DNA of 64,000 bases from Chitinophagales bacterium (GTDB taxonomy: Bacteria > Bacteroidota > Bacteroidia > Chitinophagales > UBA2359), in NCBI GenBank assembly GCA_016787295.1, contig JAEUUX010000164.1, positions 62,001 to 126,000 on the forward strand, read 5' to 3'. Below, piece by piece: positions 5,589-63,792 of the stretch; position 1 is the stretch's first letter; each line of letters starts with the position of its first letter. The notes below the pieces were generated by a model. It was not told the DNA's origin. It ran no database searches and worked only from the letters and a program-made list of their open reading frames with translations. Position numbers and translations under genes: made by a program.

Positions 5589-5629
5589 CAAACATCAAAA
5601 TAATTATTTTTTGGGCGTTCCCTGGCGGG

Positions 5630-5727
5630 CGGGCTGCTGCGGGCTTCGCTACGCTTGGTGCTGCGTTGCTCTCCGCACTGGCTAACGCCACCCTCCGCAT
5701 CCCTAACGCGCTTCGCCATTCGAACAA
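5630..5727 (-). repeat. Dispersed GC-rich repeat, copy 1 (inverted relative to copy 2)
   Basis: These 98 bp are the exact reverse complement of 22818-22915, with no mismatch. By hand count the element is about 64% G+C, clearly above its AT-rich flanks. It begins 42 bp after the FabZ-like stop and ends 77 bp before the ketosynthase start. Similarity continues with small indels on the 5610-5629 side (TTTTTTGGGCGTT...CCC). Internally GCGTTAG, GCGAAGC and GCGGAG recur, so it is repetitive and could fold. A frame reading MAKRVRDAEGG is open in one direction, but this is more likely a composition effect than a gene. Confidence 0.9.
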
Positions 5728-5804
5728 TATCCACCTAACATTTTTTTGGAGGCGGGCTAACGCCTTGCCCATCATTCCAACAACAAAAAACCTATATAAA
5801 TAGC

Positions 5805-22390: not shown

Positions 22391-22753
22391 ATGAGTCATA
22401 CTCCTGAAAGTTATATTGCGCAACAAGACGAGCCAATTGCTCAAATCATGCAAATTCTCTATCAATTTATTATGGCAAGTTCTCCTGCTATCACTTGTCG
22501 TTTGAATTATGGGGTTCCTTTTTTCTACCAAAAAAAATGGTTGTGTTATCTAAATCCGCTCAAAAAAGGAGGAGTAGAATTGGCTTTTGTTCGAGCCAAT
22601 GAGTTGTCTAATGAAAATGCTTATTTAGATTTCAAAAAACGCAAACAAGTAGCAGGAATTTCCATTATATCACCCAACGAGATTCCTTTTGAAGCAATAG
22701 ACGAAGTGCTTAAAGAAGCCTTGTTGTTAGACTCTATGAAGAGACCTAAGTAG
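22391..22753 (+). CDS. DUF1801-family protein
   Basis: A 120-residue protein with the DUF1801/YdhG-like pattern: an N-terminal helix (YIAQQDEPIAQIMQILYQFI), then NYGVPFFYQKKWLCYLNP, then GVELAFVRANEL and the C-terminal DEVLKEALLLD. The fold is small alpha/beta; biochemical function is unknown. It has its own promoter 37 bp upstream. A GC-rich dispersed repeat begins 64 bp after its stop. The 315-bp gap 22754-23068 contains that repeat and the terminator at 23016-23054. Confidence 0.75.
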   Translation: MSHTPESYIAQQDEPIAQIMQILYQFIMASSPAITCRLNYGVPFFYQKKWLCYLNPLKKGGVELAFVRANELSNENAYLDFKKRKQVAGISIISPNEIPFEAIDEVLKEALLLDSMKRPK

Positions 22754-22817
22754 GTGTGTTCTTTTATCTATTTTGTCGGAAGAAAGGTGTTTTTTGCTGT
22801 AAAAAATAACGATACTT

Positions 22818-22915
22818 TTGTTCGAATGGCGAAGCGCGTTAGGGATGCGGAGGGTGGCGTTAGCCAGTGCGGAGAGCAACGCAGCACCAAGCGTAGCGAA
22901 GCCCGCAGCAGCCCG
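22818..22915 (+). repeat. Dispersed GC-rich repeat, copy 2
   Basis: These 98 bp match the reverse complement of 5630-5727 at every position. Beyond 22915 the two copies still resemble each other with small indels (CCCGCAGGGAAACGCCC here). An ATG at 22826 opens a frame reading MAKRVRDAEGGVSQ, also present in copy 1. The A+T-rich flanks contrast sharply with the element. No target-site duplication is obvious. Both copies lie shortly after the stop codon of a plus-strand gene, but in opposite orientation. Confidence 0.9.
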
Positions 22916-23015
22916 ACCCGCAGGGAAACGCCCAAAAAAATCGATGTATTATCGGACTATTTAAGCAAAATAGAACAGTAGTCTACAAAAAAAAGTTCTT
23001 TTGAACTATTACCTC

Positions 23016-61008: not shown

Positions 61009-61118
61009 TGGCATATTTGGCGCTTTGAGGCGTTTTTTAAAATCAAAACAACCACTAATTCATCGCCAAATTGTTTTTTGCATTGTTTGATTTTGTTTTT
61101 TTGCTTATTTTATTGACT

Positions 61119-63734
61119 ATGCAATTAGCTTGGTTTAGAACTTCCGTGTTGTTGATTTTTTGTTGTTGGTTGTTGACAAATCAATGGCTGTTGGCACAAA
61201 ATTTTAGCGTTTCACCCCAACAAACCACCACAGGACTACAAGAAACTTTCACCCTAAGTTATACACTTTCGGGTGCGGAATTGCGTGATTTTCAAGCACC
61301 CGACTTCAGTAATTTTCGCATTGTGGGTGGTCCCAACAAATCGCAAAGCATTACGATGACCAATGGTAGCGTGGCGCGCAGCATTGGCATTTCTTACATC
61401 TTATTGCCACAAAAAGTAGGTACTTTCATTATCCCGCCCGCAACGGTAGTGACTGACAACAAAAAAAGTTTGCGTTCGGGCAAGGTGACGGTCAAAGTGG
61501 TGCAGGGCAAGACACAAACCCAACCACCTGCCAGCCCTTTTGGTAATTTGCCCTTTGGTTTTCCTGCTCCGCCCATGCCGCCACAACAACAACCCACACC
61601 TGCGCCGCGTGCCAATGACGAGCCGCCACGCTTGTTCCTCAAAATCAAATTGGACACCAACAGCGTTTTTGTCGGACAACAATTGGGTGTTACTTATCAA
61701 CTCTATACCAACACACCCGTCTCGACTTTTGAACTCGAAAAAGCACCACAATTTACCGGCTTTTGGGTAGAAGAGTTACCAACTACGGGCGCTCCACAAA
61801 ACGGGACTTACAAAGGTGCTAATTTTAAGATAGTAGATGTGAAACGCTATGCTCTTTTTCCACAACAAGCGGGCAAGCTAAACATCGATGCCATAACAGG
61901 TATCGCTCAAGCCGAAATCATTGACCCATCTGCCAATACATGGTTTGGACAAGCTATTATACAGAAAGTATCGGTCAAAAGCGACTCCGCTACTATCCAA
62001 ATCCAAGCTTTACCGACTAATGCACCCGCAGAATTTACGGGAGGCGTGGGTAATTTTATCCTCAAAGCCAGCACCGATAAAACCACTTTAGCCCAAAACG
62101 AGTCTTTCAAATTGTTGGTAGAAATGAATGGTACAGGCAACGTCAAGTTTATTGGCGAGCCAATCATCGTTTTTCCACCAAGTTTTGAACATTTTGACCC
62201 GCTCAACACCGAAACCATTACGCCCATAGGCAATCACATTGGCGGCACCAAGACATTTGAATATACCATCGTACCCACAGAGCAAGGGAGATACGAAATT
62301 CCACCGATTCAGATAGCATATTTTGACCCATCTTCGCGCCAATATCGCCGCCTCGAACAAGCTGCCATACCCATCACCGTTACGGCAAGCAATGGGGCTA
62401 TAGCCAATTTGGACGAAGGTAATATCTATCCGCTTCGCACTGCACCTTTGTTGTCTATTGGCTCAAAAATAGGAGCTTTGTTGCGATGTCCTATCTATTG
62501 GATACTGTTGCTGTTGCCCATTTTGCTATATATTGGGCGATACATCAGGCAGCGTTTCCGTCCTCAGAACGCTGAAAATACCACAGAATTACTACATCAA
62601 ACTGCCTATTCGAGCGCCATTCACCATATAGAACAAGCCTATCGTACTGCTGCCAAACATCCTTCAACAACTTTCTATGAACAGCTTTTGGACAACTTAC
62701 AGCAGTATTTTCGCCGAAAAAACATACTGCCCGACGAAGCTATTTTGTCCGAAAACAAGCTGTCACAAGCCCTCACATATGCGCAAATACCCGATACTTT
62801 GGTACAACAATGTTTGTCTTTGATTGCTCAAAGCACTACCTATTTGTATGCACCTTTGGCTATTAATGTCGATAATATTCGCACCGATTATGCTCAGGCA
62901 CAAGCCGTTTTGCGACAAATAGAAGACCATTTAAATGGTTCATCGAGCCAAACCAATGCCTTTAAATTAGCAATATGGCTGGGTGTGTTAGGCATATTTT
63001 CGACTCCTGTTTTTGCAAATGACAACTGGGAGACAGCCGAGCAGCAATACCAACAAAAAAACTACCGACAAGCCGCGCAAATTTACGAGCAATTGTTGCA
63101 AAATGGCGAAAAATCGGCAGCACTTTACCACAATTTGGGCAACTGTTACTATCAATTGCAACAAACGGCTCCTGCTATATTGAACTATGAACGAGCTTTG
63201 CGCTTGTCGCCCCGTAGCACCGATATACAGCACAACCTACAACAAGCCAATAAACGCGTAAGCCAAAAAGTAGATACCTTGCCTTTGTTGTTCTATCAAA
63301 AAGGACTACAGACTTTGGCTTCATTTTTATCTGTCAATGTGTGGGCAATATTGGCATTGGTGGCGGTTTGGGTTTGGTTTGTTGCACAAAAAAAACAACT
63401 TCATCGCATTTTTTATTACCGAAAACAACGTTTTACACTATTTTATAGTTGGCTATGGGCAGCAGTGGCGCTATTGTGCCTATTGTTTGCCTATCAAAGT
63501 TATCGCTATAGCCATGCGCCCGAAGCCATCATATTTGCACCGATATTGCAGTTGCAAGCACAACCCTCGCCCGAAGCCAATACCCTATTGGAACTGTCAG
63601 CAGGAGCAAAAGTACGGATTATAGACGATGCTGCCGACTGGTGGAAAGTACAAGCTATGAACGGCGAAATAGCTTGGGTGGAGCAAAAGTATTTGCATAA
63701 AGTTATAGATACCAACGTTAATGAAGCCCCGTAG
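61119..63734 (+). CDS. BatD-BatE-like fusion: aerotolerance protein with TPR and SH3-like domains
   Basis: An 871-residue envelope protein. A signal segment (RTSVLLIFCCWLLTNQWLLAQ) is followed by a BatD part: FSVSPQQTTTGLQETFTLSYTL, FQAPDFSNFRIVGGP, and a second BatD module with FTGFWVEELP and YALFPQQAGKLNI. A membrane helix (~465-485) and a cytoplasmic-type helical region follow. A further helix (~618-635) ends in a possible cleavage or anchor (GIFSTPVFA). Then comes a TPR unit (AEQQYQQKNYRQAAQIYEQLLQ, LYHNLGNCYYQL), two more membrane helices, and an SH3-like domain (LELSAGAKVRIIDDAADWWKVQAM). TPR plus SH3 is the BatE pattern, so two usually separate genes appear fused. ATG 61119 is preferred to TTG 61071. 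Confidence 0.8.
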   Translation: MQLAWFRTSVLLIFCCWLLTNQWLLAQNFSVSPQQTTTGLQETFTLSYTLSGAELRDFQAPDFSNFRIVGGPNKSQSITMTNGSVARSIGISYILLPQKVGTFIIPPATVVTDNKKSLRSGKVTVKVVQGKTQTQPPASPFGNLPFGFPAPPMPPQQQPTPAPRANDEPPRLFLKIKLDTNSVFVGQQLGVTYQLYTNTPVSTFELEKAPQFTGFWVEELPTTGAPQNGTYKGANFKIVDVKRYALFPQQAGKLNIDAITGIAQAEIIDPSANTWFGQAIIQKVSVKSDSATIQIQALPTNAPAEFTGGVGNFILKASTDKTTLAQNESFKLLVEMNGTGNVKFIGEPIIVFPPSFEHFDPLNTETITPIGNHIGGTKTFEYTIVPTEQGRYEIPPIQIAYFDPSSRQYRRLEQAAIPITVTASNGAIANLDEGNIYPLRTAPLLSIGSKIGALLRCPIYWILLLLPILLYIGRYIRQRFRPQNAENTTELLHQTAYSSAIHHIEQAYRTAAKHPSTTFYEQLLDNLQQYFRRKNILPDEAILSENKLSQALTYAQIPDTLVQQCLSLIAQSTTYLYAPLAINVDNIRTDYAQAQAVLRQIEDHLNGSSSQTNAFKLAIWLGVLGIFSTPVFANDNWETAEQQYQQKNYRQAAQIYEQLLQNGEKSAALYHNLGNCYYQLQQTAPAILNYERALRLSPRSTDIQHNLQQANKRVSQKVDTLPLLFYQKGLQTLASFLSVNVWAILALVAVWVWFVAQKKQLHRIFYYRKQRFTLFYSWLWAAVALLCLLFAYQSYRYSHAPEAIIFAPILQLQAQPSPEANTLLELSAGAKVRIIDDAADWWKVQAMNGEIAWVEQKYLHKVIDTNVNEAP

Positions 63735-63792
63735 CGCCCAACCCGCAAGAAACCGCTCAAATAAAAATAATATTATAAAATTTGTGTTGTAG

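What the first reader, a model, noticed from the sequence alone, without database searches (positions are those of the whole stretch)
5630..5727. A 98-bp GC-rich repeat with two mismatch-free copies in inverted orientation 17 kb apart
5630-5727 is the perfect reverse complement of 22818-22915 over 98 bp, while flanks diverge by small indels and then entirely. The element is ~64% G+C by hand count inside AT-rich intergenic DNA, has recurring GCGTTAG, GCGAAGC and GCGGAG words, and carries no transposase. Perfect identity between noncoding copies implies recent spread or strong constraint. It could be a REP/MITE-like element, a structured RNA or a protein-binding site. A frame reading MAKRVRDAEGG is open in both copies and risks being called as a false gene.
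Basis: seen in the sequence. Interest (0 to 1): 0.65.

Follow-up and report, generated by a model that had tools for sequence, protein, structure and literature searches.

The report
Mobile-like folded repeat related to Flavo-1
The 98-bp match is part of a folded, non-coding repeat present in well over a hundred copies in this bacterium, often inside a small transposon, and it belongs to a wider set of folded elements in Bacteroidota that overlaps an RNA family of unknown function called Flavo-1.

Summary
In detail: 5630-5727 is the exact reverse complement of 22818-22915, 64.3% G+C. It is not a two-copy curiosity: the genome holds at least 159 copies of the conserved end (217 by a looser pattern; none in the reversed control). 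The real unit is longer: a structured element (5613-5709 minus, 22836-22933 plus) with a 16-nt extension. A covariance model built only from 60 elements of other genomes finds both window copies (E 1e-9, 1e-6) and at least 145 places in this genome. Those elements fold as a three-way junction with strong compensatory changes, and 8 of 12 tested match Rfam Flavo-1 (RF01705). The window's version does not match RF01705: a relative, not a member. About 59% of sampled copies, including 22.8 kb, sit inside a 205-279-bp MITE with TA target duplications (IS630/Tc1 style); the others, including 5.6 kb, are naked, without target duplication. No Y1/RAYT transposase was found here, so the REP/RAYT idea is not supported. 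The MAKRV frame is not a gene. Most likely: a non-autonomous structured repeat that spreads by an unknown route and also hitchhikes in a MITE. Function and mobiliser remain inferred.

The parts
5613..5709 (-). structured element, naked copy
   Evidence: covariance model R1, 33.5 bits, E 1e-6
5710..5725 (-). 16-nt extension GTTCGAATGGCGAAGC, typical of this genome's copies
   Evidence: conserved across naked and MITE copies; conservation drops outside it in naked copies
5741..5764 (-). partner GC-rich module GGCGTTAGCCCGCCTCCAAAAAAA, found upstream of part of the naked copies
   Evidence: 4 exact-pattern occurrences in 464 kb, all just upstream of a core
22836..22933 (+). structured element, copy inside the MITE
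   Evidence: covariance model R1, 44.7 bits, E 1.2e-9
22820..22835 (+). 16-nt extension GTTCGAATGGCGAAGC
22753..22978 (+). MITE (about 226 bp) carrying the element; ends TGTTC... and ...GAACA; the left end of this copy has a few extra bases
   Evidence: arms shared with 53 other sampled copies
22751..22752 (.). left TA, presumed target duplication; also the first two bases of the TAG stop of the upstream gene
   Evidence: sequence; TA on both sides in 26 of 33 two-ended MITE copies
22979..22980 (.). right TA, presumed target duplication
   Evidence: sequence

Best explanation
The 98-bp repeat is the main part of a roughly 114-bp non-coding, structured, dispersed repeat. It is a lineage-specific relative of elements found across Bacteroidota that share the frame GCGTTAGGGAT ... 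AGCCCGA-[CCC hairpin GGG]-AACGCCC and fold as a three-way junction; many of these are matched by the Rfam model Flavo-1. Shown: in this genome it occurs in two settings, naked copies with unrelated flanks and no target duplication, and copies inside an IS630/Tc1-style MITE with TA duplications. Inferred: the element is non-autonomous; the MITE is moved in trans by a transposase not found here; the naked form spreads by a separate route that makes no duplication (single-strand transposition or recombination); exchange between copies helps keep them alike; and the conserved fold is what the copying machinery or a host factor recognises. Its placement gives no sign of a gene-regulatory role.
For: Copy number and controls. 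A model built without this genome finds both window copies and nothing else in the window. Compensatory changes in other genomes: covariation 0.250 against 0.084 shuffled and at most 0.060 slid; one pair 134 of 144 Watson-Crick against 66 shuffled; also within this genome, 0.122 against 0.034. MITE ends and TA on both sides in 26 of 33. Naked copies without target duplication. MITE and naked cores intermixed on the tree, at least 6 changes forced by supported branches. Intergenic, no orientation bias between tandem genes (17:13), few in divergent gaps.
Against: No filled/empty site pair was shown, so movement of the naked form is inferred. No mobiliser found. The strand-specific wobble bias (57:20) and retention at one Flavobacterium locus also fit a functional RNA. 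The tree has few columns and related sequences inflate covariation counts.
Confidence: 0.7

Rival explanations
1. It is a functional non-coding RNA family, as Rfam classes Flavo-1: the RNA, in trans or on neighbouring transcripts, does something useful and selection keeps the fold.
For: Compensatory changes; wobble-type departures favour one strand 57 to 20; at one Flavobacterium locus the boxes are invariant in five species while the distal hairpin is replaced; Rfam and PMC2864571 rate Flavo-1 a probable RNA.
Against: Hundreds of copies, no orientation preference to genes; in F. psychrophilum Flavo-1 hits lie on either strand of transcripts and many outside them (PMC9723704); carriage in a MITE.
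Confidence: 0.17
2. A REP/REPIN-type element moved by a Y1 (RAYT or TnpA) transposase.
For: High copy number, folded, no duplication for naked copies; Bacteroidetes have Y1 subclass 2.6 genes flanked by atypical structures with copies elsewhere (PMC6006769); two relatives have a Y1 gene within about 1 kb of an element (L037, L307).
Against: No Y1_Tnp in this genome; G017 and G047 have many RF01705 copies and no Y1 hit; of 12 Y1 loci scanned, only one had a Flavo-1 hit above cut-off nearby, in a genome full of copies.
Confidence: 0.08
3. The element is simply the inside of the MITE, and naked copies are decayed MITEs.
For: No arm pair without a core was found; MITE and naked cores are intermixed on the tree.
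Against: Naked copies up to 99% identical in the core have no trace of arms; elements of the same frame occur in other families and genera with other flanks; a diverged subfamily here is nearly all naked.
Confidence: 0.05

Closest known systems
Flavo-1 RNA (Rfam RF01705)
   Same: Shares the outer boxes and strand; 8 of 12 elements of the same frame in other Bacteroidota match RF01705 above cut-off; very many RF01705 copies in relatives G002, G017, G020
   Different: The window copy and a subfamily copy do not match RF01705 even at permissive E-values; different distal arm; 16-nt extension; carried in a MITE
MITEs of IS630/Tc1-type elements (Correia-like)
   Same: 205-279 bp, inverted ends, TA duplications, no coding gene
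   Different: Cargo is a structured repeat that also exists outside the MITE; parental transposase not found
REP/REPIN elements with RAYT
   Same: High copy, intergenic, folded; naked copies without duplication
   Different: Larger three-way junction; GTAG/CGTC tag not seen by eye, not scanned; no Y1 gene in this genome
ERIC-like intergenic imperfect palindromes
   Same: About 100-130 bp, intergenic, conserved ends, structured (own knowledge of ERIC)
   Different: No sequence link tested; different phylum

Membership tests
Flavo-1 (RF01705) | Match to the Rfam model at or above gathering score | tested here: not met
   No hit to the window copy at E up to 10, none to a subfamily copy, none in this genome
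Flavo-1 (RF01705) | Shared conserved frame and fold with sequences that do match RF01705 | tested here: met
   Model R1 from 60 such elements finds both window copies; 8 of 12 elements tested match RF01705
Flavo-1 (RF01705) | Acts as a transcribed RNA | not testable with these tools
   No expression data for this organism; mixed evidence in F. psychrophilum (PMC9723704)
IS630/Tc1-type MITE | TA target duplication | tested here: met
   26 of 33 two-ended copies; applies to the carrier, not to naked copies
IS630/Tc1-type MITE | Inverted ends shared with a full-length IS630-family element | tested here: inconclusive
   Only one partial DDE_3 gene in the genome, without these ends in its visible flank
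REP/RAYT | Cognate Y1 transposase in the genome | tested here: not met
   PF01797: no match; controls rang
REP/RAYT | Short palindrome with GTAG or CGTC tag | not tested
   Not scanned; the element is a roughly 98-nt three-way junction

The most novel reading that the evidence does not exclude
Flavo-1 and its relatives are a phylum-wide class of mobile, three-way-junction elements with fixed junction boxes and a freely replaced distal hairpin, spread by a machinery that is neither RAYT nor the MITE transposase, and here riding in a MITE as a second vehicle.
Probability: 0.3. Interest if true: 0.7.

Novelty: new variant of a known kind. Interest (0 to 1): 0.5.

Why it matters
Flavo-1 has been listed as a probable small RNA of unknown function since 2010. 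Linking its frame to a high-copy repeat that is also carried in a MITE gives a testable alternative: that the conserved fold belongs to a mobile or recombining element. It also warns that such copies can be called as false ORFs and often lie at contig ends, so they may break assemblies.

Tried and rejected
RAYT/Y1 link: tested in this genome and 60 relatives, no tracking with copy number. Rfam families for the window copy: none. attC-like site: dropped, since box order is GTT...AAC where attC has AAC...GTT (own knowledge). Intrinsic terminator: dropped, because the element's own T-run precedes the hairpin rather than following it (sequence). Autonomous partner inside the MITE: the 1.5-kb insert in L061 is a different transposon with its own ends. 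Plasmid, phage and viral copies: none. Literature by motif letters and by repeat terms: nothing relevant. Target duplication of naked copies: none for k 2-9.

Full report
OBSERVATION. The 98-bp stretch 5630-5727 equals the reverse complement of 22818-22915 exactly; it is 64.3% G+C in a 41.1% G+C window. Chance is excluded: a 30-nt probe has two matches and none in 100 shuffles. In the whole genome (5.42 Mb, 296 contigs) 40 places match the 98 bp at 98-100%, where the listing stops. The conserved end GGGCGTTTCCCTGCGGGTCGGGCTGCT has 159 matches with at most 3 mismatches against 0 in the reversed control; a looser gapped form has 217. Several of the best matches lie within about 130 bases of a contig end, so the true number is probably higher.

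TWO SETTINGS. I took 97 distinct copies with flanks. Of 91 with enough flank, 54 carry shared AT-rich arms and 37 do not. With arms the unit is a 205-279-bp MITE with ends TGTTCYATTTT... and ...AATGGAACA, and with TA outside one further base on both sides in 26 of 33 two-ended copies, as for IS630/Tc1 elements (established knowledge). The window copy at 22.8 kb is of this kind; the MITE runs about 22753-22978 and its first base completes the TAG stop of the DUF1801 gene before it. Naked copies, including 5.6 kb (between a FabA-like dehydratase gene and a ketoacyl synthase gene), have unrelated flanks and no target duplication. Cores range from about 71 to 100% identity, so spread is not one event. 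On a tree of cores, MITE and naked copies are intermixed, with at least 6 label changes forced by supported branches: cores have moved between settings or exchange sequence. That would also explain why a naked and a MITE-borne copy can be identical over 98 bp. The tree has few columns, so this is a rough result.

RELATIVES. In 395 genomes drawn from the phylum the end pattern occurs in 24, against a single match of the reversed control. Those elements share GGGCGTT-hairpin-TCGGGCT ... ATCCCTAACGC with a variable middle, and 8 of 12 tested match Rfam Flavo-1 above its cut-off. I aligned 60 elements, none from this genome, and built a covariance model. It finds both window copies, 44.7 bits (E 1.2e-9) and 33.5 bits (E 1e-6), and nothing else in the window. 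It finds 34 places in 400 kb of this genome and at least 145 in the genome, where scoring stopped, but none in 18 of 31 genomes. Many of the best hits are a diverged subfamily with another middle (TTGTAAGGGCAGCC...). RF01705 itself does not recognise the window copy or the subfamily copy tested, so I do not file it under Flavo-1.

FOLD. On the GCGTTAGGGAT strand the consensus is a three-way junction: P1 GCGTT/AACGC; P2 GGG/CCC, then T-A and a variable pair; a distal arm with small internal loops; and a short CCC/GGG hairpin. P1, P2 and the hairpin foot hardly vary and the search pattern largely required them, so they prove nothing by themselves. The variable pair does: T-A 78, A-T 46, G-C 10 of 144, 134 Watson-Crick against 66 shuffled. 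Over the whole structure covariation is 0.250 against 0.084 shuffled and at most 0.060 when slid; in this genome's copies 0.122 against 0.034 (that alignment was fitted to the model, so it leans towards it). Wobble-type departures favour the GCGTTAGGGAT strand 57 to 20 (my sum over six pairs). The window copy adopts this fold at -37.0 kcal/mol against an unconstrained -37.9; its overall stability is not unusual (z -1.07). Sequences are related, so these counts are not independent events.

WHAT IT DOES. Copies lie in intergenic DNA. Of 52 that could be classified, 18 are in convergent gaps, 4 in divergent gaps (23% of intergenic length is divergent) and 30 between tandem genes, 17 in the genes' direction and 13 against (simple ORF calls; 39 further copies were at stretch edges or overlapped mostly short ORFs that run through the element). 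That is the pattern of a tolerated insertion rather than of a leader, terminator or attenuator. For Flavo-1 in F. psychrophilum the literature reports hits on either strand of transcripts and many outside them (PMC9723704); the original paper rated it a probable RNA and not cis-regulatory (PMC2864571). Against a purely selfish reading, at one Flavobacterium locus the element stays at the same place in related species, with invariant boxes and a replaced distal hairpin.

MOBILISER. None found. Y1_Tnp is absent from this genome and its presence in relatives does not follow element number. Two relatives have a Y1 gene within about 1 kb of an element (L037, L307); a third hit is weak. This is suggestive at most. 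The only DDE_3 gene is partial and lacks the MITE's ends in its visible flank.

VERDICT. A high-copy structured repeat, shown to share frame and fold with a Bacteroidota-wide set that overlaps Flavo-1, shown to ride in a MITE, inferred to be non-autonomous and mobile in naked form too. The function of the fold is open.

Noticed in passing
window 63723-63765: A decayed piece resembling the element's 3' half overlaps the stop codon of the BatD-like gene 61071-63734 (79.5% identity over 43 bp, weak score).
   Followed up: partly
G002, G017, G020: RF01705 Flavo-1 is present in at least 60 copies each in three relatives (64 candidates scored per genome), far more than expected of an ordinary sRNA.
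   Followed up: partly
L136, L137, L139, L141, L144 near 1440-1600: At one Flavobacterium locus the element is kept in the same place in five species, with a G-C pair that is rare elsewhere, while the distal hairpin is replaced.
   Followed up: partly
L036, L038, L039 (G015, G010, G005), near 1507-1680: Elements in three relatives carry a longer distal arm with a shared motif GGGCTGA...GGAAGACAC.
   Followed up: no
L061:12052-13600: A MITE copy is interrupted by a separate transposon with ends ACATGGCTGCC and a transposase-like frame.
   Followed up: partly
L165, L175, L245, L255: Elements of the same frame occur in records labelled Fibrobacter and Treponema, outside Bacteroidota; transfer or misbinning not separated.
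   Followed up: no
L240:6810-6886: An element of the same frame lies on a Bacteroides fragilis plasmid (Q1F2-p2), a possible vehicle between species.
   Followed up: no
L037:2240-2755 and L307:394-852: Y1 transposase genes about 0.7 kb from an element in two relatives with few copies.
   Followed up: partly
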